Of a DNA stretch of 27,503 nt, positions 1-25,629 are shown piece by piece. Source of the stretch: a virus; the IMG/VR virus record IMGVR_UViG_3300044614_002276, positions 1-27,503 of that record; one strand, 5' to 3'. The notes under the pieces are model-generated. The model was given only the letters and a program-made list of their open reading frames with translations, was not told the origin of the DNA and searched no databases. Made by a program: the position numbers and the translations under genes. Numbering within the stretch: position 1 is the stretch's first letter; every line of letters starts with the position of its first letter.

Positions 1-1789
1 GAACAGTAAATCTGTAACCGTTGGAGACAATAACATCACCAGGAGCGATTTCGGTCTGGAAGGCGGTTCCTACACCAGTTACGTTACCACTTGAGATGGC
101 GATGGTGCCTGTTAGAGCGATATCAGCCAGTTCAGGGCGGATGTAAGGAGCACCAGCCTGGGATACCAGAGTGGAAACCTTGTGACCGTTGTTAGGAACG
201 TAAGTTGTACCAGAAACGTTAGTTCCGGAGCTTACAGCCTCAACAGTGTAGTAACCGTCGAGTTCCTTCTCTACAAGGATGTTGTTGATCTCAGTGACAA
301 GGCCGGTAGTCAGTTCGTCAGGAGTAGCTCCGTTGACGATAATGGCGCGATCCTCACCAGCAACGTTTACGTAGAATACCTGGACGGAGTCAGGAAGGTA
401 TCCAGTACGAGTTGTTGTTAATCCGCTGACAGTAACGTCTCCGCTGGGAACAACATCTACCCCACCGCTTTGGATCTCGGAGAAGGTTGTTGTGCCTAGA
501 TCATAACGCCAGTAGGAAGCGTCTGCGTCAGCCCACTTCAGGGGAGCAGCGTATCCTGTGGTCAGGTCCTTCGACACAGCCACAATCTTGTCGTCTGGGA
601 TCACTGAGGCCGATGCGTAAACGTTCTGGTCTACAAGGAAGGCCTTGATGATAGCGGATTGCTCGGAAGCGGGATTGTAAGCGATCTTACGAACGGTTAC
701 GCTGGCACCAGGAGCTCCAGAGAAGTCAATAGCAAGACCTCCGGAAGTCAGCGAGAGCTTGATGTCGTTGCCAGACTTGTTCACCACATAGTAGACAGTG
801 TTGAAACTTAGGTTACCCAGGGTACCGATCGCTGTGCCTTCGAGAATGACTTTATCGCCATTGGCTAGTCCTGTTGAGGAGGCCAGAGTGATGGTGTCGG
901 CAGTTGCGTTAAATCCAGCAATAGCTGCTGTGTAAGCCGTGGAGCTCTCGAGCAGGAAGGCGCTAATCGCGCTTCCAGAAACATGTTTAATCGGCTCTCC
1001 AGTAGAAACTTCACGAGATACGCAACGGAAGTTCATCTCCTTGACGGAGGTGTAGAGCTTTACAACAGTCTGGTTATCCAGGTCCAGAGGGGAGGCGTAG
1101 CTAGAACCATTAAATTGATACGCTACAAAACGATCAACCTGGGGTAGGTTTCTAGTATCGCGAGAGAAGATTCTGAACTTACCCGCGGTGGCCTCAACAG
1201 CATCTTGCTCGATTCTGTAGTAATCGGCGAAACTGTCACCATTGCCAGAGAGGAAAGCGTAGAGGTCGCGAGCGTTATCAACCTGATCTAGAGCAGTGGT
1301 TGTGATAACTTTGATCTCGTCTCCGTCAGGATCGTTTGCTCCGATAGGAGTTCCGAAATAACGACCATTGATTTTGAGTGCAAAGGCGTTGTAATTAACT
1401 CCTGCGGAGGAGGCTCCGAGATCGATTACGGTCTCAGGAGTCGGGGATACACGGGTGAAGTAGAGGATACCATTAGCACCAACGTTATCGAAGAAGGCTC
1501 TCACGGAGTCGTAAGAGGCCAGGGCTCCTTTGTTACCAACAGGAACAACCCCACCAACCTTCTCTACAAAATCGGCAACTGAACCGATCTGTGTTGGTTT
1601 GTAGGGCTCGAGAACGGAGTACGCGTCAAGAGCATCCTCCCCGTAGTAATCCTCAGTTGGCGTGGTGCCGAAAAGGTAACCCACAGCGTGAGTGGCCAGA
1701 GGTTGAGGCAGACCACCTGTAGAGGCTTGGGTTACGAAAACACCGGGCCGATTCAATGTCGCAGCATTGATTCTGATTGGATTGGCCAT
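1..1789 (-). CDS. Contractile tail sheath protein (N-terminal 596 residues; C-terminus off the left edge)
   Basis: The reading frame is open from ATG at 1789 to the window edge. The N-terminus contains LNRPGVFVTQ, the usual opening of phage tail sheath subunits, followed by AVGYLFGTTPTE. Sheath subunits polymerise around the tail tube and contract on infection. Around residues 290-340 there is an inserted module (LASSTGLANGDKV, then NTVYYVVNKSGND) of a type common in cyanophage fibres. The last visible residues (GTIAISSGNVTG, then GDVIVSNGYRFTV) resemble a module in the 4836-5708 protein. The conserved sheath C-terminal domain is not in view, so the call rests on the N-terminus and on tail-gene neighbours. 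A variant late box lies 34 bases upstream. It is the last visible gene of a minus-strand tail cluster. Confidence 0.8.
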   Translation of the reverse strand, partial: MANPIRINAATLNRPGVFVTQASTGGLPQPLATHAVGYLFGTTPTEDYYGEDALDAYSVLEPYKPTQIGSVADFVEKVGGVVPVGNKGALASYDSVRAFFDNVGANGILYFTRVSPTPETVIDLGASSAGVNYNAFALKINGRYFGTPIGANDPDGDEIKVITTTALDQVDNARDLYAFLSGNGDSFADYYRIEQDAVEATAGKFRIFSRDTRNLPQVDRFVAYQFNGSSYASPLDLDNQTVVKLYTSVKEMNFRCVSREVSTGEPIKHVSGSAISAFLLESSTAYTAAIAGFNATADTITLASSTGLANGDKVILEGTAIGTLGNLSFNTVYYVVNKSGNDIKLSLTSGGLAIDFSGAPGASVTVRKIAYNPASEQSAIIKAFLVDQNVYASASVIPDDKIVAVSKDLTTGYAAPLKWADADASYWRYDLGTTTFSEIQSGGVDVVPSGDVTVSGLTTTRTGYLPDSVQVFYVNVAGEDRAIIVNGATPDELTTGLVTEINNILVEKELDGYYTVEAVSSGTNVSGTTYVPNNGHKVSTLVSQAGAPYIRPELADIALTGTIAISSGNVTGVGTAFQTEIAPGDVIVSNGYRFTV

Positions 1790-4083: not shown

Positions 4084-4494
4084 ATGAAGCCTGGATTAGT
4101 AAAAGCGTACATGGACATCGCCGAACGCTTCGCCCAGGTCTCCGAGTGCCAAAGGCTTAAGGTCGGCGCCATAGTGGTTAAGAACGGCTCTATTCTAGCG
4201 CATGGCTGGAACGGAACTCCAAGTGGATTTAAGACCAACGTCTGCGAAAGAGAGGACGGAAAGACGTCTCCGTTTGTCCTTCACGCCGAGCAGAACGTTC
4301 TGGTTAAAATGGCCAAGTCGACAGAATCCATCGAGGGGGCCGAACTCTTCTGCACCCACTCTCCGTGCCCCGAATGCTCTAAACTGATGGCCCAGAGCGG
4401 AGTAAAGAAAGTCTATTACAAGCATAAATACAGAATTACTGAAGGCCTTGACGTTCTCCAGGAACTTGGAGTTGACGTGGAGCAGGTCCAATGA
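4084..4494 (+). CDS. Deoxycytidylate (dCMP) deaminase
   Basis: It deaminates dCMP to dUMP, feeding thymidylate synthesis during phage DNA replication in the cytoplasm. The zinc site of the cytidine/dCMP deaminase fold is complete: H67-A-E69 (LHAEQNV) and P-C95-P-E-C98. The family signatures LKVGAIVVKNG and HGWNGTPSGF precede it. At 136 residues it is a compact full-length member. CGGAAA lies upstream of ATG, and an extended -10 promoter lies 21 bases upstream. The stop overlaps the next start (ATGA). The identity is clear; allosteric control by dCTP/dTTP, known in T4 dCMP deaminase, cannot be judged here. Confidence 0.93.
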   Translation: MKPGLVKAYMDIAERFAQVSECQRLKVGAIVVKNGSILAHGWNGTPSGFKTNVCEREDGKTSPFVLHAEQNVLVKMAKSTESIEGAELFCTHSPCPECSKLMAQSGVKKVYYKHKYRITEGLDVLQELGVDVEQVQ

Positions 4495-5716: not shown

Positions 5717-6535
5717 CTAGTTATTATAGTAGTCTTTAATCAGGGAATCCTCAAGACTATTAGTGAAGAACGCGTACATGTGTGGTGGAATCACCGTGAC
5801 GGGAGGAGGATTGTCCCACAGCACGAGCCAGTTATTGCAGAGAAGCATGCGTATCTTGGACGCTACTCTTCTACTGGACCAGTCTATCTCGGTACCTCTA
5901 AGATCCACAAGCGTCTCGTATGTTTTTCTGAACATCGCGAAGTTTTTGTTAGAGGAAGCGGTTATTACGGGCCTGAAGTCCCTCAAAAGGCGTTCCTGAG
6001 CCACCGTGGGTAGGTTGCAGTTTCTAGCAAGCAAAGCTTTTAGTGACCTATTCTCTCCGAGGTTGATCACGTCCAGAGCAGCGCAGTTCGATACGTTAAG
6101 CACCTCGAGTTTTGGAGCCGACAGGACCATAACAGCCCTCATGTTGACATTACCTTCAAGATTGAGGTGAGTGAGTTCGGCTCTGTGTAGATTGAGATTA
6201 GCGTGAACTAACTTATTCTTCTGAAGGTTCAGTCTCTGTACGTAGGGGTCGACAAGAGCGTTGTCTTTACCCGATATCCAGTGATCCTCCCATGTCAAAA
6301 TCTCCTGGTTTGATAGCTTCATCTCAGGTATAATAATCGGCACTCTTTGATCCCTTGAGATCTCTAGAACGTAGGAATCATTCATTTGCTTGAAAAGCCC
6401 CGCGTTGCTATCCGAGAACGGGATCCCCTCGGTATTGAGCCGTATGTAATTAAAATGCTCCGGCGCCTTCAGTCCAAAGGACAGAGTCTTGGCGCCTTTC
6501 ACGGTCTTGAAAAATGTTTGGATTTTATGGTTCAC
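5717..6535 (-). CDS. Leucine-rich-repeat protein, 272 aa
   Basis: The start is ATGA-coupled to the stop of the 1298-aa gene. Residues about 99-175 show repeated LRR-like steps: RLNLQKNKL, ANLNLHRAELTHLNLEGN, LEVLNVSNCAALDVINLG, SLKALLARNCNL. The N-terminal 95 residues look beta-rich. The C-terminus has a Pro-rich segment (WDNPPPVTVIPP) and a tyrosine-rich tail. LRRs usually bind proteins. Being locked between two structural genes suggests a virion or assembly role rather than a cytoplasmic effector. I cannot name an orthologue. Confidence 0.65.
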   Translation of the reverse strand: MNHKIQTFFKTVKGAKTLSFGLKAPEHFNYIRLNTEGIPFSDSNAGLFKQMNDSYVLEISRDQRVPIIIPEMKLSNQEILTWEDHWISGKDNALVDPYVQRLNLQKNKLVHANLNLHRAELTHLNLEGNVNMRAVMVLSAPKLEVLNVSNCAALDVINLGENRSLKALLARNCNLPTVAQERLLRDFRPVITASSNKNFAMFRKTYETLVDLRGTEIDWSSRRVASKIRMLLCNNWLVLWDNPPPVTVIPPHMYAFFTNSLEDSLIKDYYNN

Positions 6536-9500
6536 TTGAGTCTACCTCCGGATAGGGTCGGAGGACAGAAGCTTAGTGAATACTGATCATCTAGCGGAGG
6601 AGAGAACCTCTTGCACTTCATGATATTCATGCAGATCTGGTAGTTAAATGGGGAGTCGAAGCTAGCGCAGTTGAATTCTGTTGTCTTCTCGAGTTTAGCT
6701 CGAATGAACTCTACTATAGCAAATTCTGTGCTGCCGTACTCACTCAGTTCTGGCCCGCCGGCCTCGTAGACAAGGGGATCCGAAAAGATGCTTGTAAGAA
6801 TCGGTTCGCCACTCTCCCCGATAAGAGTGGTGTCTGGAAGCAGGGACATATAAGCCGGCGGGGTGGTGTAAGACGACGTCGAAATAAGAGTTTCCGAGGG
6901 TTTGTACTCGGCAAATGTTCCAAGCGGTCTGTCAACTGGTACCGAGGACGCGGAAAGGCCGGGAACTTGGGAGTATGTCTCTGGGAACAGAGCTTTGTTA
7001 AACGCCCCCGCGCATCTCTCCTGCGAGTTGGCGTACAGTTCCTCGCAATTATCCCCACCGAATTTTTTGCATGATTCAACCGGATCGAATAGTGGCACTT
7101 CGGGGCCATAAAGCCCAGCGTCTGCGCTTTCTTTCGATATGTAATTTGCTCCTAGCGTAGACGCTCTGAGATCAGGATTGCCCTCCAGTTGCTTGTATAG
7201 ATCTACTACAGTGTAAGGTTTACTCTGAGGAACCACCCTGTTCTCAGTTAACTCGTACTTAGTTGCTGGGGTGAAAGAGATTTTCCTAGACTTAGAGGAT
7301 ATTAACCCGACAGTTTCGTCGGTGAGAGCAACGTTATTTGCCAGGGTGTTTCCGTCCGAGAACTTGATGTACTTACTCACAAGGCTACCAGGAATCTCGG
7401 AAATTATTCCCAGCTCTCTCATCTGAGATGTAGACTCGAAGATCTGCTGAGCCTGCTCAGGAGTTACGGAGTTAAGCACTGGCACTCTGTTAGGAACTCT
7501 GGAGTTTCCTATTCCCGGACTCTCGGCGATAGGCGCGGATGCTGCGAGCGAAGTCTGCCCAGAGATGCTACTCCCTTGCGCTCTTGAGGAGATAAGTTGA
7601 GGTATCGTCTCAAAGGTTTTATTCTGTGAGTAGATTAGAGGCTGCAAACTGCTAGCAAACTCCGTGTCCGTAGTAACTGTGTAGTTAAGTCTAGAGCTGA
7701 AAATAGTCCTGATGATAGAAACGGAGTCTATAAGACCGTCAATAGTTTCCACCAGTTTTGGCATGGCGTAAAATTCGGAATTCTCGGAGACTTTGAAATT
7801 ATCCACTTGGTACGAGTTCTTGTAAAATCCGAGTTTAAGCCCCAGGCCAGAGAGACTGGCGTACCTTAAGAAACTAGCAAACGATCCGCCACTGAACCCG
7901 TCGATAACAGCCCCGAAGCTATTAGGAGAGTTGGGCATATTGAGAATGGTTGCAAGTTCTTTTGGAGTGAGTCCTTGAGCCCTGTCGTATAGGTTTTCTA
8001 CTATCGACTTAGAGTCTATTCTCCCGAGATTGTTTCCTATGATTTCGGTCCACTGCTTGAGCGCTATAGGCACCTGAGAGTCAGCCTGATCGTAGTTTAT
8101 TGTAGGTGATGAGAAGGGATCGTCCGCATAGACACCTGTAATCATCTGCTCTACAAGAGGCTGGATGAAGTTAACATCCTCCCTGTTTTTGATTATAGTG
8201 CTCTCTCCGTTCTGATACAGGAACGAAATCGACTCAAGTAGGGTGAGATTGTTTTGCCCTAGGATCTCGTTAAATTTAACTAATTGAGTCGGATCAACGG
8301 CGTACGTAAGTCCAATGAGCAATCCGATGAGCTTGGGATACCTGCTTATGTTAATATACGTGGCTTTTGACTTATCTTTCTGCGACAGACTCAGGATGTT
8401 CAGAAGCGAATCCAGAGGGTTTTTGGCGTACAGGAAAGACAGGTAAGCGTCAACTCCTGCCTGCCCTCCGAATTCGTATATCAGCTGAGCTAATTCGTAG
8501 CCCTTGAAAAACGACTTAAGATCCGAAGAGTCGGAGAGAGGGGCAAAGTTTGTGATAAGTTGGGAGAAGTCCTCCGCTTCTATGAGTTTGTTTATCTCGT
8601 AGTCTCTGAATCCCAAAGAACTTAAGTACGAGATAACTCTTCGGTCATTAGCTTCGAAAGACTTAAACGAGAGATTCGGGATGAAGGCCGAGGTCGTTAC
8701 CCCGAGCCTCTTAATCAGGTCACTAACCTCCTCCAATTTACCAGTTATCCTCTCCACCCATGGCCCAAAGAATTCCAGCGAGTCACCAGGAAGGAGCGGA
8801 TTTATGACCGCTTTTGAGAACCTTGAGTAGTTATTCAGAAGGTACCTGATTGCTCCTGTGAATCCGGCAAGAGTTTTGTTAGTATTGTTAGTATCTAACA
8901 TGTACGTTGTAGGAGGGAAAACTCTCTGGAACTCGTCCATCTGAGTTTTCACTGATCCAAGACCCTCGTACCCTGGAACTTTTCCAGTAGAATCCAGTGT
9001 GTTAGACAAAGCGGCGATTGTATCGCCCACAACCAATGATCTTTTATAAAGGCTCTCTATGGCGAATAGAAGTAGATCCACTCTCGCCTGCTCAACGTAA
9101 GTCAAAGGCTCAGCGAGCAATCTATACCGATCCTGGATGCCGGCAGAGAACTGGGAGTAGACAGGGTTGTAGATTACTTTACCGGAGGAGATTGGAGTTC
9201 CTTGCGGTAGCTTCTGCCTTTGAGTAAAAGATCTCAAAGCGCCAAAACTATCCAAAAATTTGAGTCCTGGAATTTTATTTGTCTTTATTCCGGACTTGAA
9301 GAGAATATCGAATTTGCCAAATACGGAGTCACCGTCGTAAACATCATATACCTCCGGCAAGTCCCTTCCAAACGCCACTGTGAGAAGGTATTCGGAGAAG
9401 CTGGCAATATACTCAACTCCACCAACAGGTGAACCTTCGTATCCCCCGAAAGCTTCGGAGACACCTCTGAGTCCTCTGATGGAGTCTAAAATCTGCTTTC

Positions 9501-10428
9501 CAGCTCCGCCAAAAGTCGATGGGAGGAGCTTTTCGTCAACGAAAATTTCCTTAGAATACCTAGTAATGTTGGAGTCGGATGTAACGGAGTTAACATCAAA
9601 CCCTATGTTAGTCACTTTAGAGAAAGCGGAGCGAATTTTTGACTCGTAGACGACTCTAAAAGATTTTGAGCTGTCAAACCTTCTGGAGGAGTACTTTACC
9701 CACTGCTCTGGGTCAAAATACGAGCGACTTGGCTCTGAAATCCCTGGTTTTAATTTATAGAGTTGCCCGTCATAGACTATCAGGCTCTCGTAGATGATGG
9801 GTATCGAGTACTTGGACAGACCGATCTTGGAGGCGATCCGGTTGTAGCTTAGTGGAGAGTAGGACGTAACTGCTGTTAATGCCTGGTACTCCTCCCAGTA
9901 CCTGCTGCCAGGAAACAAGGTGTATATGGCCAGAGTTTCTTCGTTTATCTCGTCTGGCACAAGTGCGTAAAGTTTCTCTGAGTACTGGTACTCAGGTTGC
10001 TCCTGTATGATATCTAGAGCGCTGGAAGACGCGTAGAACGAGTAATTGTTGATGTTCTCAGAGAACAGGATGAAGTAGCTATCTAGAATCCTGGTGAAGT
10101 TGGCGTCGTAGTTGGGTTTTGATTTTATAAACGAACTTAGACTAGACTTAAGATACGGAAGAAGACTCTCCACAGTCTCTACATCAAACTCAAGCTCGAA
10201 TAGAATCTGAAGCAGAATCTGCTTGAATGGGATTACGGAGATCTCCTCATCGCCCTCGATACGATCTAGCACGAGGCTAAGTAGCTCTATTCCCGTATCA
10301 AGAAATCTCTGCTTAACAACGTCAATTTTGAACTTACCAAAGTCCCTCTCGTAAGCGGAAACGCTCTCCGAGACGAGTTTTTGCAGACCGATACGGATTT
10401 CCTCGAAAAGCTGTAGAGTCATAGACAT
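6532..10428 (-). CDS. Very large virion-type structural protein, 1298 aa
   Basis: This is the first gene of a three-gene minus-strand operon. The ATG at 10428 has a second in-frame ATG at 10422 that lies exactly 22 bases from the late box, so the true start may be two codons later. The N-terminal two thirds look mainly helical. A Ser/Pro/Gly-rich linker lies roughly two thirds of the way along, and the last 180 residues carry several cysteines (CKKFGGDNCEELYANSQERC, then FNCASF, ICMNIMKCKRF). No transmembrane segment is evident. It lacks obvious tape-measure character. Size, late promoter and neighbours suggest a baseplate or other large virion component, but I do not recognise the family. 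Confidence 0.7.
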   Translation of the reverse strand: MSMTLQLFEEIRIGLQKLVSESVSAYERDFGKFKIDVVKQRFLDTGIELLSLVLDRIEGDEEISVIPFKQILLQILFELEFDVETVESLLPYLKSSLSSFIKSKPNYDANFTRILDSYFILFSENINNYSFYASSSALDIIQEQPEYQYSEKLYALVPDEINEETLAIYTLFPGSRYWEEYQALTAVTSYSPLSYNRIASKIGLSKYSIPIIYESLIVYDGQLYKLKPGISEPSRSYFDPEQWVKYSSRRFDSSKSFRVVYESKIRSAFSKVTNIGFDVNSVTSDSNITRYSKEIFVDEKLLPSTFGGAGKQILDSIRGLRGVSEAFGGYEGSPVGGVEYIASFSEYLLTVAFGRDLPEVYDVYDGDSVFGKFDILFKSGIKTNKIPGLKFLDSFGALRSFTQRQKLPQGTPISSGKVIYNPVYSQFSAGIQDRYRLLAEPLTYVEQARVDLLLFAIESLYKRSLVVGDTIAALSNTLDSTGKVPGYEGLGSVKTQMDEFQRVFPPTTYMLDTNNTNKTLAGFTGAIRYLLNNYSRFSKAVINPLLPGDSLEFFGPWVERITGKLEEVSDLIKRLGVTTSAFIPNLSFKSFEANDRRVISYLSSLGFRDYEINKLIEAEDFSQLITNFAPLSDSSDLKSFFKGYELAQLIYEFGGQAGVDAYLSFLYAKNPLDSLLNILSLSQKDKSKATYINISRYPKLIGLLIGLTYAVDPTQLVKFNEILGQNNLTLLESISFLYQNGESTIIKNREDVNFIQPLVEQMITGVYADDPFSSPTINYDQADSQVPIALKQWTEIIGNNLGRIDSKSIVENLYDRAQGLTPKELATILNMPNSPNSFGAVIDGFSGGSFASFLRYASLSGLGLKLGFYKNSYQVDNFKVSENSEFYAMPKLVETIDGLIDSVSIIRTIFSSRLNYTVTTDTEFASSLQPLIYSQNKTFETIPQLISSRAQGSSISGQTSLAASAPIAESPGIGNSRVPNRVPVLNSVTPEQAQQIFESTSQMRELGIISEIPGSLVSKYIKFSDGNTLANNVALTDETVGLISSKSRKISFTPATKYELTENRVVPQSKPYTVVDLYKQLEGNPDLRASTLGANYISKESADAGLYGPEVPLFDPVESCKKFGGDNCEELYANSQERCAGAFNKALFPETYSQVPGLSASSVPVDRPLGTFAEYKPSETLISTSSYTTPPAYMSLLPDTTLIGESGEPILTSIFSDPLVYEAGGPELSEYGSTEFAIVEFIRAKLEKTTEFNCASFDSPFNYQICMNIMKCKRFSPPLDDQYSLSFCPPTLSGGRLK

Positions 10429-12079: not shown

Positions 12080-14026
12080 ATGGCTGAGGACCGCGCCGTA
12101 GCAAAGCAAGTAAAAGTAGGCTACTTCGATAGGTACTTCAGCCTAGGAGTGTCCCAGGGCAGCCTAGCAGGCTACAAAGCGGATCCTTACGCCTTTACAG
12201 CGACTCCCTACCTCAACTCTGGCACGATCCTACCTCGCCGCGATGACATCCTCATCGAGGAGGGTGGCGGCGGACCCAGGGCCATTGAGAAGTACATGCG
12301 GCTGTTCAACGACAGCCACATCATCGCTGCTTGGGAGAAACTGACTGGGGAGATCGTGCAGCGCAAGTGGGAAGTAGATCCCGCTAGTCCCTCGGATAAG
12401 GACGAGGAGGTTGCCGAGTTTGTCCGCCAAGTGCTTAAGCGCATGGGTACTAACACCCGGCAGGCTTACGGCAAGGAGATGCTCGTTACATCCAACTCCG
12501 CGTTCGATACGTTTATCCGCGGTATGTGCGAGTCGGTGATCCTAGGCATCTCCATAGGGGAGATCTGCTGGATGCGCCAGGGCAACTACATCGTGCCTTC
12601 CGAGATCAAGATTCGTGACCCGCGCAGGTTCCAGTTTGTCCTTAACGAGGACGGAACCATCTCACCGAGACTGATGACGGTGGATTCGCCCGTGGAAGGC
12701 ATTCCGCTTCCTCTGCGCTCTATGGTAATCCATAGGCACTGGTCATACAGCAACTTCATGGACCCGTATGGCACAGGTCTGGGACGCCAACTCTATAGCC
12801 TCGTGGAATTCAGACGGACCCTCATGTCCTTCTGGCTTCAGTACGCGGATAAGCATACCACCCCCACAGCGGTGGGTAAGTTCTCGCTCGGAACCCCCGA
12901 TGAGGAGGTTCAGTCACTCTTCACAGCGCTTCAACGTCTGGGTCAGGAAACCGCCATTGTCATCCCAGACGAGATGGATATTAGCTGGCTGGAGAGCCAG
13001 GGCCGCTCCGAAGTTTACGAGAAACTCATCGAGTATGTTGATCAGCAGATCAGTTTTGTTATCAATGGCGAGAACACAGTCGGCCAGGAGACAGGAAATG
13101 TTGGATCGTACGCCCGTGACCAGATCTCCGATTCGGTTCGCATGCGTAAAGCTAAAGCGTTCTCTGAGGAACTCGACGAGACGATTAACGCTACTATTAT
13201 ACGCTGGATTGTTGAGCTTAACTATCCGGGCGCAGCTGTTCCTAGACTTCGTAGAAACTTTGATGATCTAGAGCAGCGAGATGATCCCGTTAAGATCGTG
13301 CAGATGCTCACTCAGCTTCAGGCCATCGGCTACGAGGTCAAGGACCTTGACTGGGTGAGAGACAAGCTCGAGATCCCGTCCCTGGGCAAAGTGGACATGA
13401 GTGCCATGATGGGAGGAGCTCCAGGGGCCCCAGGAGCGCCTGGCGGCGCCGCTCCTATGGCCGAACCTAAGGACCTGAGCGGCCCGGATAAAGCCGCTGA
13501 CGGTGCTCAGGGGGCTTTCGGAGCTGACCAGGGAGACCTACTCAGCCTGTTCGATTTTGCCGAGAGCGAGTATGACGAGGTCGGTGATGAGTCGGATAAG
13601 ACTCGTAAGGACAAGATCGCCAAGATCATCGCGTCCAAGTTCGATGGCACGCTCGATGATGTCGGGTTCCAGCGTATTGTCTCCGACAATGGCGATTCGG
13701 AAGCCTCAGCGTCCCGCATCCACATCAATGAGTACACCTCGCCAGGCGACATCTCCCACGGTTCCCGCCGGCTTATCGAGGAGGTTAAGAAAGTGGCTTA
13801 CATTAATCCCGAGCAATCGATGAATCTGAGCGCTCTGGACGGCGAGCTTCACACCTTCGAGAACATGATCCGCATTGATGATCTCAAGGCATGCGACACT
13901 GCCAAGCTTATAGAGCTCTACGAGCGCATCTATCGTCTCAACCGTTCTGTAGTGCACAAGGAGTGCGTTGTCATCGATTGCAGAAGGGCCGGTTACTGGA
14001 AGTGGTTCGCTCCGTACTTTATGTAA
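12080..14026 (+). CDS. Portal protein, Mu gp29-like (DUF935 type), 648 aa
   Basis: The portal is the dodecameric ring at one capsid vertex through which DNA enters and to which the tail joins. Residues about 70-430 follow the DUF935 pattern: SHIIAAWEKLTGEIVQRKWE near the start, MDPYGTGLGRQLY, then TTPTAVGKFSLGTP, ETAIVIPDEMDISWLE, GNVGSYARDQISDSVRMRKA and IRWIVELNYPGAAVPRLRRN. A Gly/Ala/Pro-rich linker (about 440-475) separates this from a C-terminal domain of about 170 residues that I do not recognise. T4 and typical T4-like cyanophages instead use the gp20 family, so this marks a different lineage. ATG lies shortly after GAAGAG. Confidence 0.85.
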   Translation: MAEDRAVAKQVKVGYFDRYFSLGVSQGSLAGYKADPYAFTATPYLNSGTILPRRDDILIEEGGGGPRAIEKYMRLFNDSHIIAAWEKLTGEIVQRKWEVDPASPSDKDEEVAEFVRQVLKRMGTNTRQAYGKEMLVTSNSAFDTFIRGMCESVILGISIGEICWMRQGNYIVPSEIKIRDPRRFQFVLNEDGTISPRLMTVDSPVEGIPLPLRSMVIHRHWSYSNFMDPYGTGLGRQLYSLVEFRRTLMSFWLQYADKHTTPTAVGKFSLGTPDEEVQSLFTALQRLGQETAIVIPDEMDISWLESQGRSEVYEKLIEYVDQQISFVINGENTVGQETGNVGSYARDQISDSVRMRKAKAFSEELDETINATIIRWIVELNYPGAAVPRLRRNFDDLEQRDDPVKIVQMLTQLQAIGYEVKDLDWVRDKLEIPSLGKVDMSAMMGGAPGAPGAPGGAAPMAEPKDLSGPDKAADGAQGAFGADQGDLLSLFDFAESEYDEVGDESDKTRKDKIAKIIASKFDGTLDDVGFQRIVSDNGDSEASASRIHINEYTSPGDISHGSRRLIEEVKKVAYINPEQSMNLSALDGELHTFENMIRIDDLKACDTAKLIELYERIYRLNRSVVHKECVVIDCRRAGYWKWFAPYFM

Positions 14027-14083: not shown

Positions 14084-14512
14084 ATGCTCTCTTACAAGCC
14101 GGTAACTCAGTCGCAGTTCTGGATCCAAGCGTCCCCCTTCCAGCACTACTTCACCAACTTCAGCGGAATCCGTGATACCGCCGGGACATCCCAGTACGCC
14201 GACGGCGTTCGCGGACGTATCTTCAACCTTCGCGGCCCTCGCACACTCTCCGAGGTAACAGTGACTGTGCCTTTCGATCCTGAGAAGCACGCCGACATCG
14301 TCGACTTCTGGAAGGCTTACGGTTGCGAATTTGTGACCCTGACCATCACTCCTGTCTCCTGCGGAGAGGATCCCCAGCCCGTCGGCCAGCGCACGATCAC
14401 TATCCCTGATGCTCAGATGACAAGCCTGAACTTCGGAGCCGCTGACCGTACCTCCTCTAACGTTTCCACTCTCGAACTAACGTTCGTGATGGATACCTTC
14501 ACATACAACTGA
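14084..14512 (+). CDS. Putative tail tube (or tube-like virion) protein, 142 aa
   Basis: The size and all-beta look fit tube proteins: RTLSEVTVTVPFDPEKHADI, then FVTLTITPVSCG, RTITIPDAQM and a closing LELTFVMDTFTYN. The polymer of such a protein forms the channel inside the sheath. No strong ribosome-binding site is visible before ATG, but a late box is. A tube gene directly after the portal would put it about 12 kb from the sheath and on the opposite strand, which is unusual. Alternatives are a head-tail joining protein or a fibre-base protein. Confidence 0.55.
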   Translation: MLSYKPVTQSQFWIQASPFQHYFTNFSGIRDTAGTSQYADGVRGRIFNLRGPRTLSEVTVTVPFDPEKHADIVDFWKAYGCEFVTLTITPVSCGEDPQPVGQRTITIPDAQMTSLNFGAADRTSSNVSTLELTFVMDTFTYN

Positions 14513-14535: not shown

Positions 14536-15597
14536 ATGACGCTCTCCAACCTCTACTTTAGGGGGTGCTTTGAGCAACCCTCGGAAGATCAGAAGGACGC
14601 CATCGAGGAGGCTGGTGGGATAGCCGAAGTGGCGGATAAGAGCTGCTCCAGAGCAAGTATTAACACTTGCGGCATGAGCATCGAGCGGCTCTTTAGCACT
14701 TACAGTATTTACAATCCGCAGAAAGGACTATATAAGTCATGGGGGGACATCGAGTTCCCCTGGCAGATTAGTAGTCTAACACCTAACCTTCTGCTGTCAG
14801 GGACAGACGATAAGTGGAGCGTCGCGCAGTACAGAGCTTTAGTGGCGTATACCGAGGGATCAAGAGTCCTGCTCATAGAAGACGACGGGTACAGAGTAAG
14901 CCTTTACGAAGCGGACGAGGACATCCTCGCGATTACCGGAGCGTTCGACTACTCCAAATGGAATAAAATCTGCCACGTGGAGACGACGGAACCGGCTGGG
15001 GTGCCCTCCATCGAGGAACTGCTGGAGCGCTACGATTTCTACGAGTTAAAGCTTTTTGATACCGAGTGGGGAAAATATAGCCGGAGTTGGGACGAAGCGC
15101 TTAAGACCCAGAGCCTTGAATCCTGCGTGCAGCAGGGTCTGACTCTAAACGATCTGCAGAACTGCCTCGATCTAAAGTCCTCGGATGAGTGGGACAGCGC
15201 TAGGATCCGCAGGGACTTCTTCTACAGGGCTGGAGACATCGTCCTAGTCAGCGGGGAATGCGAGGATGTCATCTGCGTCTATATTGCTAAGCAGAACATC
15301 CCGGCTACTGAGGAAACTCTGAGAACCCAGTCCGTCTTCGATCCTAGAAGCACTTTGTGGCAGAAGATCTACTGCGCACCTACAGGGCGTAATAAGTGCC
15401 TCGAGTACCAGAGGAAGAAGGAGCCTGCGCTAGGTTACGACGTGGTTGAGATTGGGTCTAAAGGCCACTTTGTCGAAGTCCCAGTCCCCTACAGACTGAA
15501 GCCTCAAACGCAGTCACTTAACGAAAAAGTGGAGGTAGTAGCACCTCCTAGAGTCCTAACACAGGCGGAAATAGACGCCCTAAACCAACCACAATAG
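14536..15597 (+). CDS. Unknown virion-associated protein, 353 aa
   Basis: A GGTGAGG sequence precedes ATG. The protein is mixed alpha/beta with many tryptophans and cysteines (KSCSRASINTCGMSIERLFS, ESCVQQGLTLNDLQNCLDLK). A repeated pattern of a tryptophan motif followed by a beta hairpin is hinted at (TDDKWSVAQYRALVAYTEGS; RRDFFYRAGDIVLVSGECED), which recalls carbohydrate-binding modules, but I cannot assign a family. A Pro-rich C-terminus may be a linker. It stands first in the fibre cluster and is 12 bases from the next fibre gene, so a baseplate-to-fibre connector is plausible. Confidence 0.65.
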   Translation: MTLSNLYFRGCFEQPSEDQKDAIEEAGGIAEVADKSCSRASINTCGMSIERLFSTYSIYNPQKGLYKSWGDIEFPWQISSLTPNLLLSGTDDKWSVAQYRALVAYTEGSRVLLIEDDGYRVSLYEADEDILAITGAFDYSKWNKICHVETTEPAGVPSIEELLERYDFYELKLFDTEWGKYSRSWDEALKTQSLESCVQQGLTLNDLQNCLDLKSSDEWDSARIRRDFFYRAGDIVLVSGECEDVICVYIAKQNIPATEETLRTQSVFDPRSTLWQKIYCAPTGRNKCLEYQRKKEPALGYDVVEIGSKGHFVEVPVPYRLKPQTQSLNEKVEVVAPPRVLTQAEIDALNQPQ

Positions 15598-19161: not shown

Positions 19162-22100
19162 ATGGCGTATCTTGGCAACGACGTAGACGCAATTTTTATC
19201 CCTGGGAGCGTTAACACCTCAACAAACTTGACTATCACAGGAGGGGCGCTTACCCAGACCGGGGGCGATGTCAACTTCGATAGCGGGACTCTGTTTATTG
19301 ACGAGGATGTTAGTCGAGTTGGCATTGGCACCACGTCTCCTATCTCTTCGCTTCACGTAAGAGCTGCCTCTAATGGTGGGATCAGTGTTGATGCGGGTTC
19401 GGGCTATCCAGCGATCTGGTGGTCGGAAAATGGAGTCAACAAATGGAGCGTAACAAGCAATCTAAACGCTGATAGCGCCTTTGTAGTACGTGAGAGCGGA
19501 GTTGCTGATCGGCTTAATATAAAGATCGGTGGAAATGTAGGCATTGGTACTACGAACCCAGAGGAAAAGCTTCATGTACAAGGTGTTGGTATAATTACCT
19601 CCACTCTATATGTTGGAGGAACTTCATCGTCATCTAATTCTTTAGAAATATCTAATTCTGGTCAAGATATTCTTCGGCCTGGTGGTCGAATTTTACTCAG
19701 AGGTGGTGGAGGTCAAAGTACAAGAAACAGTATTGAATTAACAAATAATGCCGGAATTATAATTGACGGTGGAAGCGGAGAAACCTATGGTGTGGAGATA
19801 AAAGGCGGTGGGGGTCCAGTAAAAATTACGCAGGGAAATGTTGGCATAGGCACAACCAATCCTACCTCGCGATTCGAGACCCAAGAGGATACCACCTCTA
19901 ACACCGATCTGACAATCACCAACGCGAATACTGGCGTCAACACCACTAAAGGGGCCAGAATCAGGTTTAGGCTTACGGATACTGTAGGAACGCGAAAGAA
20001 CGTAGCTTTTATCTCGGCGTACTCCTACAACCAGGATTCTTCAGCCGGAAATTATCTCACTTTCTCCACCAGAACTACAGACTCCGATCCCACGGAGAAG
20101 GTGCGGATCACAAACACGGGTAACGTTGGCATTGGCATAACAAACCCATCTGACACTCTCCACGTCTCTGGGACCATAAATGCCACCTCTGATATGAGTT
20201 TGGGGGGTGAACTTAACTTCTACAATGTTAGCGATAAATTCGTAGATTTCTACACCAACACCGGTCAAACAGCTAATCTGAGACTAGTGGATTCTGGAAG
20301 TACTTCCTTCCATAGCGCGGTAAGGCTGATCCGGGGTGGAGCGGTTGAGCTCTATCATAATAACACGAAGCGACTCGAAACCACCTCGAGCGGTATACTT
20401 ATTTCCGCACCCAATCTAGGAGCCAATATCGGCGACACGGTTACACTGGCGGATTTTGTACATAATAATGGTGGCAACGTTTCCTACCTGCGAGTAATCT
20501 CGCGCAGGAACTCTTCCACGCAGAACTGGACTGGTGCGTCAACTAAGATCGTAAACGTAACCGACGTAACCTACCAGGGGTACATCGAATTCAACGCTGA
20601 CGGGGCTCCAAGTAGTATCGCGCTAGGTCAGGGAGGTTCCGAGTACGTTAGAGTGGTAAGTAACGGCAATGTTGGCATTGGCCGTACAAATCCCGAGTCA
20701 ACTTTACATGTTGCTGGGACCTTTAGATCGACTTTAAACTCCGGTGCTGGAGGAGATACACTACTAAGTTCTATTAACGGCGTTAGTAACGGATATATCA
20801 CATCTGTAGATACTAGTAACAATATCACCTACAGATGGAACACCGGGAGTAATAACCAAGCGATGATGATTGATGCCTCCGGTAATGTTGGCATTGGAAC
20901 AACTCCAGCGTACAAGTTCGATGTTGGAGGAGGAGTGGCTAATATTGCCTCAAGGACAAAGGCTACAACGGGGGAGAGTCTCAGGCTCTCTACCACCGAC
21001 TCCACCGACAGAATGGAGTTGTTATTCTCCCACGCCACAAACTCCTACTGGAGGATCCAGGCCGTGGAACAGAGCGTTTCCTACAGGCCTCTGGTACTAA
21101 ATAACGATGGCGGAAACGTCGGAGTCGGAACAACAGCCCCCGGAACTAAGCTTCATATCTACGACAACACTGACAGCAGCTCTGTCACATACACCCAAAA
21201 CGCGAGTACTGGGACCAATGCTTTCTCCGCGTTCACAATAAGAGCCGGAAGTACCCAAGCGTGGTGGTGGGTGAATTCGCAGAATAGAAGCGCCGATGGA
21301 GGAGTATCCACCTCCACACTGAGAAACGACGGAGGGTCGCTACGGCTCCAAGCCACAAGCAACGATGGCATCTTTATTAAGGGCGGGGCTACACATGTAG
21401 GAATCGGCACGGAAAATCCTGTAACAACTCTGGATATCAGAGGCAGTACCGCTGAATCCCTATACATCCGTAGATCGGATATCGCCAACATCTACGGATT
21501 TATGGGAGTTTCCACATCTAATACGTTCCGCATAGGATCTTATATTACCGGAACTGGGTGGGGGAATATTATTATCAACGACGGTGGGGGTAATGTCGGT
21601 ATAGGTACCACCAACCCCACAGTAAGGCTCCAGGTCGATGGGGCGGTGGCAGCCTCTAGTACCGGAGGGTTCCTAAACACCACTTTTGCCATCAATGCTA
21701 GAAACCCCATCTGGAGATTCGGCAACGCCGACGCCTACGGCCTCAGCTACTTCCAAGGCACAGCGGGCGTAAGCCCTTCAGCTGGCGGGGATACTATCGG
21801 CTTCCACTTCGGCACCGCGACCGCCGCTGCCTCCCTCCTCCAGATAAACGCTGGGCGGGGAATCGTTGTCAATGGCGCACAGGATAACATTATCGCCTCG
21901 GAGAGCGGGACTTCCAACGCCTGGAGGGGAGTGATCAGATCGACCAACTCCTCGGCGGATAGGACCTCGTTCCTGGGGACGTACGCCGGGGTGGGTGGTG
22001 TGTTCTGTCATAACCACGCCTTTAGCGCTTGGGCGGATCTTTACGTCAATACGGTGGATGGAACCAGTGGAGGACGGACGATAATAGCGAATACCACCTC

Positions 22101-23793
22101 TGTTCTGACCACTTTAGGAACGCGGACTAACGGCACGACCTACGGAGGCAATACTGCCGGCCTCACGCTCAACTCCGTAGCCGAGGTCCGTAGCGCTCAG
22201 ACCGCTAACCCTCCGGCCCTAACATTCCACTATGAAGGCATCGCCACAAGGCACCTACTGCTGAACTCCAGCGGTCAGTTTAATTTTGTCTCTCCGACAA
22301 GCGAGAATTCCGGCGTTGCTGTTGTTCTAGTCAACGGAAACACCGTCTGGCATGCCGGTAACGATGGGGCCCTATTCAACAATATGGGCGCGACTCACAC
22401 CGCTAGATCGAGTTTTGACGCCACGTCCCCCAGCTACGGGTTTGGCTACCGGTACGTGCAGGGAGCGACTAATGGTCCGGGGACAGGAGGTACTCAGTTC
22501 TACTCTTGGTACATCGGTCTAGGGTCGGATTACGGGCCAACCGGCGCCACTTCCTACGGCGCCATGTTCGCTGTTGATAGGAACGTGGCGGTACCTTACC
22601 TATCTGTGAGGTATAATGAGGGAAATAACTTTACATCCTGGAGAAAGATTAGCGCGGGATTCGCCGATAGTTCCTCTAGATTGTACTCCACTGATAGCGT
22701 TTATAGTTACGGTTCCTCTAACCCGTACTACGGGTACCTGACTTATATCGGCGGGAATAGTAGGTGGAGATTCCAGGTAGCTCCCGCCACCCCCGCGGCC
22801 GTAGAGGTCGCCTACGCTGATTATGCTGGAGGTGCAGCTTCTACTCCCTATCCAGTCTTCTCCGGCGACTCGGTCGATGTTGCGAATATAACTTCAAGAA
22901 TAGACTCCGGCTTTTACCAGCAGAGCAGTCCAACTACGGCAAATGGCTGGCCTTACAATGGAAGCTGGGCGCACCTACTCGCGTGCACTCACGCCAACGA
23001 CGCAAACTACTACTCCATGCAGTTTGCCGCTAGCTTCTACGCCAACGATTTGTACTACAGATCGACCAACGGAAACGGAGGCACTGGGTGGTCGAGAGTA
23101 GCTCTCTATAACAATAGCTTCTCAGGTGACCTGTACGCGAACGTTTTCCGCGATTCCAACGATCCGACCAATTATTACTTAGATCCTAACGGCTCGTCAC
23201 AATTGTACAGGGTAAGAGTCGGTCCGTATGCTGGATCTACAAGCAATGGAAACCAAGCAGGTCTTGAGATGCTGAACTCTGGTGGTACTGGAGATGGCAA
23301 CGTAGCAGCGATATCCTTCCATTGCGCAGGCAGCTATGGAGTCCACCTGCATCTCCGCCACGACGGTTACTTCGGTGCCGGCGGATGGTCCGCTTCGACC
23401 TGGCGCTGGTACGTTAACATGACAAACGGCGACATGACCGCTGCTGGTAACGTCACCGCGTACTCCGACATCAGACTCAAGGAGGAGATCGAGCCTCTGC
23501 AAAACTCCCTAGAGAAGCTGATGCAGATAAACGGGGTGTCCTTCAGGTGGAAGGACCTGCCCGAAGTTGTCGGCCATCCGGGTAAGAAGGACTTCGGAAT
23601 CATCGCGCAAGAAGTCGAAAAAGTATTCCCCGAGGTAATCCACCAGTCGGCTCACGAATCTCCGGATGGGGATCCGTACAAGACGGTGGCGTACGATAAG
23701 CTCGTTCCTGTTCTCCTGGAGGCGATTAAGGAGCAACAGAAGCAGATCGATGAGCTCAGGGAGGAGATTAAACAGATCCGGGCTGGGAGATAG
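19162..23793 (+). CDS. Giant receptor-binding tail fibre with S74 intramolecular chaperone, 1543 aa
   Basis: AGGGAG lies upstream of ATG. The N-terminus (MAYLGNDVDAIFIPGSVNT) is a probable attachment head, sharing MAYLG with the fibre at 26155. Nine VGIGTT-P-type units occur between about residues 53 and 815, each starting a beta module. The central part has modules such as WHAGNDG and FRDSNDPTNYYLDPNG. The last 109 residues are a peptidase S74/endosialidase chaperone: S1435-D-I-R-L-K1440 gives the expected Ser-Lys pair, followed by KKDFGIIAQEVEKVFPEVI and a C-terminal coiled coil. In this family the domain assists trimer folding and then cleaves itself off before the Ser. Residues about 143-230 are encoded by unusually AT-rich DNA. 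Confidence 0.9.
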   Translation: MAYLGNDVDAIFIPGSVNTSTNLTITGGALTQTGGDVNFDSGTLFIDEDVSRVGIGTTSPISSLHVRAASNGGISVDAGSGYPAIWWSENGVNKWSVTSNLNADSAFVVRESGVADRLNIKIGGNVGIGTTNPEEKLHVQGVGIITSTLYVGGTSSSSNSLEISNSGQDILRPGGRILLRGGGGQSTRNSIELTNNAGIIIDGGSGETYGVEIKGGGGPVKITQGNVGIGTTNPTSRFETQEDTTSNTDLTITNANTGVNTTKGARIRFRLTDTVGTRKNVAFISAYSYNQDSSAGNYLTFSTRTTDSDPTEKVRITNTGNVGIGITNPSDTLHVSGTINATSDMSLGGELNFYNVSDKFVDFYTNTGQTANLRLVDSGSTSFHSAVRLIRGGAVELYHNNTKRLETTSSGILISAPNLGANIGDTVTLADFVHNNGGNVSYLRVISRRNSSTQNWTGASTKIVNVTDVTYQGYIEFNADGAPSSIALGQGGSEYVRVVSNGNVGIGRTNPESTLHVAGTFRSTLNSGAGGDTLLSSINGVSNGYITSVDTSNNITYRWNTGSNNQAMMIDASGNVGIGTTPAYKFDVGGGVANIASRTKATTGESLRLSTTDSTDRMELLFSHATNSYWRIQAVEQSVSYRPLVLNNDGGNVGVGTTAPGTKLHIYDNTDSSSVTYTQNASTGTNAFSAFTIRAGSTQAWWWVNSQNRSADGGVSTSTLRNDGGSLRLQATSNDGIFIKGGATHVGIGTENPVTTLDIRGSTAESLYIRRSDIANIYGFMGVSTSNTFRIGSYITGTGWGNIIINDGGGNVGIGTTNPTVRLQVDGAVAASSTGGFLNTTFAINARNPIWRFGNADAYGLSYFQGTAGVSPSAGGDTIGFHFGTATAAASLLQINAGRGIVVNGAQDNIIASESGTSNAWRGVIRSTNSSADRTSFLGTYAGVGGVFCHNHAFSAWADLYVNTVDGTSGGRTIIANTTSVLTTLGTRTNGTTYGGNTAGLTLNSVAEVRSAQTANPPALTFHYEGIATRHLLLNSSGQFNFVSPTSENSGVAVVLVNGNTVWHAGNDGALFNNMGATHTARSSFDATSPSYGFGYRYVQGATNGPGTGGTQFYSWYIGLGSDYGPTGATSYGAMFAVDRNVAVPYLSVRYNEGNNFTSWRKISAGFADSSSRLYSTDSVYSYGSSNPYYGYLTYIGGNSRWRFQVAPATPAAVEVAYADYAGGAASTPYPVFSGDSVDVANITSRIDSGFYQQSSPTTANGWPYNGSWAHLLACTHANDANYYSMQFAASFYANDLYYRSTNGNGGTGWSRVALYNNSFSGDLYANVFRDSNDPTNYYLDPNGSSQLYRVRVGPYAGSTSNGNQAGLEMLNSGGTGDGNVAAISFHCAGSYGVHLHLRHDGYFGAGGWSASTWRWYVNMTNGDMTAAGNVTAYSDIRLKEEIEPLQNSLEKLMQINGVSFRWKDLPEVVGHPGKKDFGIIAQEVEKVFPEVIHQSAHESPDGDPYKTVAYDKLVPVLLEAIKEQQKQIDELREEIKQIRAGR
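19590..19850 (+). other. AT-rich insert-like module inside the giant fibre gene
   Basis: I counted 20, 24 and 25 G+C per 60 bases in the lines at 19621, 19681 and 19741, against 32 of 60 at 19861. The frame is intact and the edges lie next to VGIGTT repeats. The composition differs from the rest of the gene, suggesting a recently acquired fibre module. Confidence 0.6.
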
Positions 23794-23839: not shown

Positions 23840-24223
23840 ATGTCCATCTCGTATTCCTGGAAGATCATCAGTATTAAAAGAGTCGACACTTCGGACCTCC
23901 AGGGCGTTGTCTTCCAGATCGACTGGAAGAAGATCGGCACGGACGCAAGCGGCGATACCGGGGAATTCCTAGGTACCACCAACTTCGATCCTAAAACTGT
24001 CGATCCGGAGAACTTCACCGCGTTCGAAGATCTGACCGAAGAGCGGGTTCTTGGTTGGATCGAGGAGGTTGTTGTAGGTGACTACGAACGTCAGGTAAAC
24101 GCTCGTGTTGCTGAGCAGATCGAGAATAAGAAAATCATCATCCACCAGGTATCCGACGGAAAGTTCCCGTGGCAACCTACTGACGCCACCATAACTCCTG
24201 TCTTTACTCCTAGTGCGGAATAA
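23840..24223 (+). CDS. DUF7936-like fibre-cluster protein, 127 aa
   Basis: The ATG at 23840 is preferred over 23825 because it gives the usual family opening (YSWKIISIKRVDTSDLQGVV) and a normal distance from the late box. Other landmarks are QIDWKKIGTDASGDTGEF, FDPKTVDPENFTAFEDLTEE and VLGWIEEVVVGDYERQVNAR. I recall proteins of this pattern as frequent companions of cyanophage fibre genes; no biochemical role is known to me. Its TAA overlaps the next start as TAATG, so the two are probably co-translated. Confidence 0.75.
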   Translation: MSISYSWKIISIKRVDTSDLQGVVFQIDWKKIGTDASGDTGEFLGTTNFDPKTVDPENFTAFEDLTEERVLGWIEEVVVGDYERQVNARVAEQIENKKIIIHQVSDGKFPWQPTDATITPVFTPSAE

Positions 24224-25629
24224 TGCCCCTAGTATCGTCCGGTGAGATCAGTATTGGTGGCTCGACGACGAACCGCTCGATCAACCTCGAGTTGGGTAGA
24301 GCCGCAGGTGCCAACTCCTCGCTCAATGAGACCGCTCTGAGAAGCCTCGCTGGCATCAGTTCCGGCACTATATCGCTGAGCAACTTCTACGGTAAATCCT
24401 CCTTCACCCACACGTACTTCATACGTACGTACGGAAACTACGGCAACGGTACTGAGCTCGCAGCTGTTGCTAGGGACTCGTCAACAAACGTCTATTTAGC
24501 GGGTTCGGCGGGTAGTGAAAGTGCGGGGGCGTATATAGTAAAGGCCGATGCCAACGGAACTGTTCAGTGGCAGAGGTCCCTGGGCGCTTACACTGTTACT
24601 TGGGGCAATGGAGTAGGCTACGACGGCTCTGGTAACGTTTACGTTGCGGGTCAAGGAGGCAGTGATGTTTTACTGGTAAAGTATAACTCTAGTGGAACCC
24701 TCCAGTGGCAGAGGACTCTTAGCGGTCCGTATAACGACCTAGCTTTTAAACTAGCGGTAAGCTCTGCTGGTAACGTTTATTTCTCAGGGACAACTGAAGC
24801 TGCAGGAGCCAACAGTAACATACTGACCGCCAAGTACGACACAAATGGTAATCTTCAGTGGCAGAGAACCTTATCATCAGCTAGCTCGGAGTCCCTCTGG
24901 GATGCCACAATAGACTCTTCTGAAAATGTCTACATCTGCGGAGCCGGTTACGGTCTAAGCCCTGGAACCGCGTTTATTGCAAAGTATAACTCAAGCGGAA
25001 CTCTCCAGTGGCAGAGGAATTTTGGCTCCGGTAATGGTTGGTACTTTTTCTCGGTAGCAGCCGATGCTTCGGGGAATCTATACGCTAGTAGTAACGTTGA
25101 CACCATAGTTAAATATGACACTAACGGAAATCTGCAGTGGCAGAGAAGTTTAAGCGGTTGTAATTTTGGGGCTATAGCTGTGGACTCGAGTGGCAATTCC
25201 TACACTGCTGCACTAAGCGAGGTGACTGAGGGATCTACACTATACTACGTTCTTGTTTTTGCTAAAATTGATACAAGTGGAACCCTCCAGTGGCAGAGAT
25301 ACCTTAGAGACAATCAACCCTATTATATTACGGCAAGTTGGCTCGCAGCGGATATGTCAGTAGATTCCTCCTCTAATATGTACTGCGTTGCATTGTCATA
25401 TGATAGTAATTATAGTTCACAAGGTCTGTTTATTAAACTAAGAGGAGATGGGTCCGTAACCGGCACCTACGGAATCTATACTTATGCTGTAGCAAATAAA
25501 ACTTACTCTACTCCAAGTGCTACAAATGCTACAGCCACACTAACTGACGCGGCTGGAACATTGACCAGCGCTGCTTCTTCGTACGCTGACGCCGCTAGGA
25601 CTATCAGCCCAACGGTGACTACGTTATAA
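24223..25629 (+). CDS. Beta-propeller adhesin of the fibre cluster, 468 aa
   Basis: The N-terminus (LVSSGEISIGGSTTNRSINL, then LRSLAGISSGTISLSNFYGKS) is a virion-attachment domain common in cyanophage fibre and tail proteins. Next come six repeats ending in (T/N)(L/V)QWQR, with the tryptophan at residues 116, 162, 213, 263, 306 and 357, a period of 43-51 residues. Each is followed by a VDSSGNVY-like turn, as in SBBP/PQQ-type beta-propeller blades. A degenerate seventh blade may follow (GDGSVTG). The C-terminus is Thr/Ala-rich. It most likely displays a propeller for binding surface polysaccharide or protein. The DNA around 25381-25440 is AT-rich (18 of 60 G+C). Confidence 0.8.
   Translation: MPLVSSGEISIGGSTTNRSINLELGRAAGANSSLNETALRSLAGISSGTISLSNFYGKSSFTHTYFIRTYGNYGNGTELAAVARDSSTNVYLAGSAGSESAGAYIVKADANGTVQWQRSLGAYTVTWGNGVGYDGSGNVYVAGQGGSDVLLVKYNSSGTLQWQRTLSGPYNDLAFKLAVSSAGNVYFSGTTEAAGANSNILTAKYDTNGNLQWQRTLSSASSESLWDATIDSSENVYICGAGYGLSPGTAFIAKYNSSGTLQWQRNFGSGNGWYFFSVAADASGNLYASSNVDTIVKYDTNGNLQWQRSLSGCNFGAIAVDSSGNSYTAALSEVTEGSTLYYVLVFAKIDTSGTLQWQRYLRDNQPYYITASWLAADMSVDSSSNMYCVALSYDSNYSSQGLFIKLRGDGSVTGTYGIYTYAVANKTYSTPSATNATATLTDAAGTLTSAASSYADAARTISPTVTTL

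What the first reader, a model, noticed from the sequence alone, without database searches (positions are those of the whole stretch)
12080..14026. Mu-type portal in a phage with cyanophage-style contractile tail genes
The portal follows the DUF935/Mu gp29 pattern, whereas the best-known cyanophage myoviruses use a T4 gp20-type portal. It also has an extra C-terminal domain of about 170 residues after a Gly/Ala/Pro linker. This suggests a separate lineage of cyanophage-like myoviruses, or module exchange of the head-packaging genes.
Basis: partly seen in the sequence, partly recalled or inferred. Interest (0 to 1): 0.6.

Follow-up and report, generated by a model that had tools for sequence, protein, structure and literature searches.

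The report
Mu-type portal of TIM5-like cyanophage
This gene encodes the ring protein through which a virus of ocean cyanobacteria loads its DNA; it is built like the one in phage Mu rather than the one in the usual T4-like cyanophages, which is already a feature of the known S-TIM5 lineage, but it carries an unexplained extra helical piece found in no other viral or bacterial protein searched here.

Summary
The 648-aa ORF at 12080-14026 is a Mu gp29/DUF935 portal (Pfam Portal_Mu, E=1.7e-77, residues 72-432); the T4 gp20 profile finds nothing in relatives' genomes but finds T4 and S-PM2. The lineage is not new: the portal is 64% identical over 99% of its length to that of cyanophage S-TIM5 (Aurunvirus), with the same gene order, and TIM5-like cyanomyoviruses have been recognised since 2012. 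In that lineage the whole head set (portal, Mu-like protease, Phage_Mu_Gp36 adaptor, major head protein) groups with Mu/RcapMu/B3-type and Nodularia phages. The sheath groups instead with Leptolyngbya/Anabaena cyanomyoviruses, which have other head proteins. So a head module exchange is supported, shared with S-CBWM1. The C-terminal extension (~150 aa beyond a G/A/P linker) is conserved, under purifying selection, predicted as a helical bundle, always fused to this portal, and found nowhere else. Mu-type portals generally have a linker plus helical tail; Mu's last 124 residues are absent from its virion structure, presumably cleaved. An invariant [PG]M[ASG]E motif in the linker fits a prohead-protease site. 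Best reading: an internal assembly tail, probably removed at maturation (inferred, not shown).

The parts
12080..14026 (+). portal protein, 648 aa, Mu gp29/DUF935 type
12293..13375 (+). portal core, residues 72-432 (Pfam Portal_Mu)
13385..13549 (+). Gly/Ala/Pro/Met-rich, indel-rich linker, residues ~436-490
13451..13465 (+). invariant linker motif APMAE (residues 458-462; [PG]M[ASG]E in all TIM5-like portals aligned): candidate prohead-protease site (inferred)
13547..13564 (+). conserved LFDFAE motif (residues 490-495) at the start of the C-terminal region
13604..14023 (+). C-terminal domain, residues ~509-648; helical bundle 555-643 predicted with pLDDT mostly 80-94 (last helix lower)
   Evidence: sequence relatives only in TIM5-like portals
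14084..14512 (+). tail tube protein directly downstream of the portal
   Evidence: (phrog_5102), 83% identical to S-TIM5 homologue; within 300 b downstream in 118 of 124 TIM5-like loci
2..1789 (-). tail sheath, N-terminal part, cut by the window end
   Evidence: phrog_17610, E=1.5e-145
6532..10428 (-). homologue of S-TIM5 virion structural protein gp140

Best explanation
The gene encodes the dodecameric portal of a TIM5-like cyanomyovirus. Its core (residues ~61-433) is a Mu gp29-type portal that nucleates head assembly, threads DNA and binds a Mu gp36-type adaptor. It belongs to a Mu-type head set (portal, protease-scaffold, major head protein, adaptor) combined with a contractile tail whose sheath is related to those of freshwater cyanomyoviruses. 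The C-terminal ~150 residues hang on a flexible linker inside the prohead, form a helical bundle, act during assembly (probably by contacting the scaffold or protease), and are probably cut off at the conserved [PG]M[ASG]E site by the Mu-like protease at maturation. Shown: family, lineage, mosaic gene relationships, and conservation and confinement of the domain. Inferred: location inside the prohead, assembly role and cleavage.
For: Family. Not gp20. Lineage and synteny. Mu-type head set: PF10123 protease in S-TIM5 and TIM5-like contigs above cut-off (S-CBWM1 below it), absent in T4 and S-PM2; PF07030 adaptor above cut-off in S-TIM5 and S-CBWM1, below it in two contigs, absent in T4 and S-PM2; major head protein nearest YPCBV-1/RcapMu/RR1-B/Nodularia. 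Sheath nearest Lbo402, Nostoc N1 and A-1(L); the portals of Lbo402 and A-1(L) are phrog_145 with no Portal_Mu match. Portal tree: TIM5-like + S-CBWM1 clade 100/98. C-terminus: purifying selection, dN/dS ~0.03-0.11 in most pairs with finite dS; helical bundle. Mu gp29 lacks its last 124 residues in the virion structure, read there as probable cleavage by protease I (PMC11915804). Invariant linker motif, 36/36 against a shuffled mean of 9 and 12/12 in the most distant group, at the place of the FAE-like motif in B3-type portals.
Against: No proteomic or structural data on cleavage in TIM5-like virions were seen. The motif was chosen after looking at the alignment; similar FAE/FSE strings in the proteases lie partly in conserved helices and need not be cleavage sites; Mu gpI has none under the pattern used. 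The C-terminal domain is not detectably homologous to the tails of B3/Mu portals (hhalign probability 0.2%). The full-length AlphaFold model was poor (mean pLDDT 44), so no placement on the portal could be modelled. Mu gpT itself is not detectably related to the S-TIM5 major head protein, so 'Mu-type' for the head set means the RcapMu/B3/YPCBV-1 branch rather than Mu proper.
Confidence: 0.6

Rival explanations
1. The C-terminal domain stays in the mature virion as a permanent internal crown or barrel extension that organises packaged DNA or holds internal proteins.
For: The crown domain of the JBD30 portal stays inside the capsid (PMC11445458); long helical barrels exist in other portals (own knowledge, P22). 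The domain is conserved and predicted to fold.
Against: Mu loses or does not order its last 124 residues; a long flexible, indel-rich linker with an invariant motif is unlike a rigid barrel.
Confidence: 0.25
2. The C-terminal domain is a fused accessory function replacing the MuF minor head protein, which follows the portal gene in Mu-type phages.
For: A MuF-type gene follows the portal in Mu and RcapMu; PF04233 is not found in S-TIM5, S-CBWM1 or two TIM5-like contigs, while Mu rings at 1.6e-34.
Against: S-CBWM1 lacks MuF too and has no such domain; no sequence or fold similarity of the domain to any MuF was seen.
Confidence: 0.1
3. The portal alone was swapped into a T4-like cyanophage.
For: Host group is shared with T4-like cyanophages; the S-TIM5 sheath has distant similarity to T4-like cyanophage sheaths.
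Against: Protease, adaptor and major head protein are also Mu-type; the Portal_T4 profile finds nothing in S-TIM5; the sheath is much nearer to Lbo402/A-1(L) than to S-PM2 or T4.
Confidence: 0.03

Closest known systems
Cyanophage S-TIM5 portal (YP_007006089.1; Aurunvirus, TIM5-like cyanomyoviruses)
   Same: 64% identity over 99% of the length, same C-terminal domain, same gene order around it
   Different: 619 vs 648 aa; C-terminal domain only ~42% identical; shorter linker
Phage Mu gp29 and JBD30 gp32 portals (taken to be PDB 9khx and 8rka)
   Same: Portal_Mu core; linker and tail after the core; Mu's last 124 residues absent from the virion structure
   Different: Distant in sequence; tail shorter and not detectably homologous; a MuF gene follows the portal in Mu
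Synechococcus phage S-CBWM1 portal (Aokuangvirus)
   Same: Groups with TIM5-like portals in the tree (100/98); shares head set, terminase and sheath type
   Different: 459 aa, no C-terminal domain, portal gene beside the protease gene rather than beside the tube gene
Portals of RcapMu, RR1-B, YPCBV-1, PM105 and Nodularia vB_NpeS-2AV2
   Same: Same portal family by similarity; related major head protein and/or protease in most of them
   Different: Several are siphoviruses or transposable phages; shorter tails; sheath, where present (YPCBV-1), of another type
T4 gp20 / S-PM2 portal (PF07230)
   Same: Same role
   Different: Different sequence family; no match

Membership tests
Portal_Mu (PF06074, DUF935, Mu gp29) | Score above the curated cut-off over the whole profile | tested here: met
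   261.5 bits vs 23.9, profile positions 4-336 of 336
Portal_Mu (PF06074, DUF935, Mu gp29) | Genome also carries the Mu-type protease and gp36 adaptor | tested here: met
   Tested in S-TIM5 and TIM5-like contigs, since the head operon lies outside the window; (adaptor below cut-off in the two contigs)
Mu-type head operon | MuF gene (PF04233) after the portal | tested here: not met
   None in S-TIM5, S-CBWM1 or two long TIM5-like contigs; found in Mu. A feature of the Mu operon, not of the portal family
Portal_T4 (PF07230, gp20) | Profile match | tested here: not met
   Not among hits of the portal; absent from S-TIM5, present in T4 and S-PM2
TIM5-like cyanomyoviruses (Aurunvirus relatives) | Homologous structural genes in the same order as S-TIM5 | tested here: met
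   Window ORFs match S-TIM5 from sheath to fibres in order
TIM5-like cyanomyoviruses (Aurunvirus relatives) | Infects Synechococcus | not testable with these tools
   Window is a virus contig without host data
Protease-processed Mu-type portal | C-terminus removed in the virion | not testable with these tools
   Candidate site conserved; needs virion proteomics

The most novel reading that the evidence does not exclude
The C-terminal bundle is a new, lineage-specific assembly domain: a portal-tethered factor, released by the prohead protease, that recruits scaffold or protease to the portal vertex and so helps ensure one portal per head.
Probability: 0.25. Interest if true: 0.5.

Novelty: new member of a known kind. 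Interest (0 to 1): 0.33.

Why it matters
It places a widespread group of ocean cyanophages by parts: a head set shared with Mu/B3-type and Nodularia phages, and a contractile tail shared with cyanomyoviruses of filamentous cyanobacteria. The conserved linker motif and tail make a testable statement about portal processing across the Portal_Mu family.

Tried and rejected
Match of the C-terminal domain to a mycobacteriophage CRB2 'portal' (E=0.7): the match is on the strand opposite the gene, so chance. Pfam, PHROG and PDB sequence searches with the domain: only weak, inconsistent hits. Fold searches with the domain model: generic three-helix bundles and, in the viral library, only the S-TIM5 portal itself. 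Homology of the domain to the tails of B3/Mu portals: hhalign probability 0.2%. Full-length portal model: low confidence, only broad portal resemblance. Domain sought in bacterial and archaeal genomes: none confirmed. Standalone copies sought in the fetched loci: none. PF07230 and PF07068 searches first had no positive control; PF07230 was repeated with T4 and S-PM2, PF07068 was not, so the lack of a Gp23 match is not used as evidence. The original S-TIM5 paper is not held.

Full report
Observation. The ORF at 12080-14026 (+) is 648 aa. It matches Pfam Portal_Mu at 1.7e-77 over residues 72-432 and PHROG 113 portal at 2.5e-85. Its only significant sequence relatives in the PDB are two portals, 8rka and 9khx, which I take from length and the structure papers to be those of JBD30 and Mu. 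The T4 gp20 profile finds nothing in S-TIM5 but finds T4 and S-PM2 in the same search.

Lineage. tblastn against phage records gives S-TIM5 and three close relatives at ~64% identity over 99% of the protein, then S-CBWM1 at 36% over 61%, then RcapMu-like phages at ~32%. The window's genes follow S-TIM5's order from the sheath to the tail fibres. The taxonomy line for S-TIM5 is Aurunvirus. [quoted passage not shown] 2012 (PMC4928673); TIM5-like cyanomyoviruses are counted as a lineage in ocean surveys (PMC8975747). The separate lineage is therefore known. IMG/VR holds at least 65 relatives of this portal.

Head and tail have different relatives. In S-TIM5 the protease matches Mu-like_Pro and the adaptor matches Phage_Mu_Gp36, both above cut-off; the gene at the end of that operon matches phrog_209 at 1.7e-4. 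T4 and S-PM2 have neither Mu profile. The order protease, major head protein, gp36-type adaptor is as in Mu. The major head protein's nearest relatives outside cyanomyoviruses are Chromohalobacter YPCBV-1, Rhizobium RR1-B, RcapMu, phiSHP3 and Nodularia phages, largely the same phages as for the portal and protease. The sheath's nearest relatives are instead Leptolyngbya Lbo402-yong5, Nostoc N1 and Anabaena A-1(L): E=4e-57 and 1e-47 for Lbo402 and A-1(L), against 1e-12 for S-PM2 and nothing within E=10 for Mu or YPCBV-1. The portals of Lbo402 and A-1(L) are phrog_145 and do not match Portal_Mu. The small trees agree but have long branches. S-CBWM1 shares head set, terminase and sheath type with S-TIM5, so the combination probably predates their split. 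Terminase relatives are spread over many phages and do not point to Mu. The head operon itself lies outside this 27.5-kb window; these statements rest on S-TIM5, S-CBWM1 and long TIM5-like contigs.

The C-terminal extension. After the core, 215 residues follow here, 187 in S-TIM5, 38 in S-CBWM1, and 64-126 in RcapMu, Nodularia, Mu and B3-type portals. The extension has an indel-rich linker (~436-490) and a conserved part. Identity between the two main TIM5-like groups is ~79% in the core and ~42% in the last 143 residues; pairwise dN/dS in the C-terminal part is mostly 0.03-0.11 where dS is finite and not tiny, higher than in the core (~0.01-0.03) but strongly purifying. AlphaFold on 42 C-terminal sequences gives helices at residues ~555-570, 577-598, 604-624 and 634-643, mean pLDDT 71, most of the bundle above 80. 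In 131 of 131 loci with the domain it is in an ORF with the portal or in an ORF cut by the contig start; profile-guided scans of viral contigs and of 84,980 genomes found it nowhere else, within the sensitivity of those scans, which keep only the best 80 loci. PDB fold matches are generic helical bundles.

How it probably works. B3- and Mu-type portals also have a Pro/Ala/Gly-rich linker, often an FAE-like motif, and a helical-looking tail. In the Mu virion structure the last 124 residues of gp29 are absent, which the authors take to support cleavage by protease I (PMC11915804); the last residue implied, 388, aligns with window residue 417, before the linker. In TIM5-like portals the linker carries [PG]M[ASG]E in 36 of 36 aligned sequences, with a looser form of the motif expected in a mean of 9 after shuffling each linker, and in 12 of 12 of a third, more distant group the same kind of motif is present. 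A similar string follows the protease domain in S-TIM5, S-CBWM1, RcapMu and YPCBV-1. T4's prohead protease cuts after L/I-x-E (own knowledge). I infer that the motif is a prohead-protease site and that the domain acts before cleavage. This was a post-hoc choice of motif, some FAE strings in the scaffold lie in conserved helices, and no direct evidence of cleavage was seen. A permanent crown extension is the main rival.

Verdict. An ordinary member of a described but little-studied lineage. The mosaic of a Mu/B3-type head set with a freshwater-cyanomyovirus-type sheath, and the lineage-specific portal tail with an invariant linker motif, are worth a note; I found no statement of either in the papers I searched, but the original S-TIM5 paper was not available and the search for S-CBWM1 did not return its original description.

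Noticed in passing
L100:4481-4771 (-), also L099: A 96-aa ClpS (Clp protease adaptor, Pfam E=1.7e-20) gene lies between portal and tube genes in a TIM5-like contig.
   Followed up: partly
L007:7944-8711 (+): A 255-aa ORF with a NUMOD3 motif, likely a homing endonuclease, sits between portal and tube genes.
   Followed up: partly
window 19162-23793 (+): 1543-aa fibre-like protein ending in a Peptidase_S74 intramolecular chaperone (E=1.9e-17).
   Followed up: partly
window 24223-25629 (+): 468-aa protein with beta-propeller repeats (PQQ_2, SBBP) among the tail-fibre genes.
   Followed up: no
window 4084-4494 (+): dCMP deaminase gene set among structural genes, as in S-TIM5 (74% identical).
   Followed up: no
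window 14536-15597 (+): 353-aa protein aligning to the N-terminal ~280 residues of a 485-aa S-TIM5 virion protein; the rest does not align.
   Followed up: no
L201-L280: S-CBWM1-like portals are common in IMG/VR (at least 80 loci); those printed end in acidic low-complexity tails, and none of 72 tested has the tube gene just downstream.
   Followed up: partly
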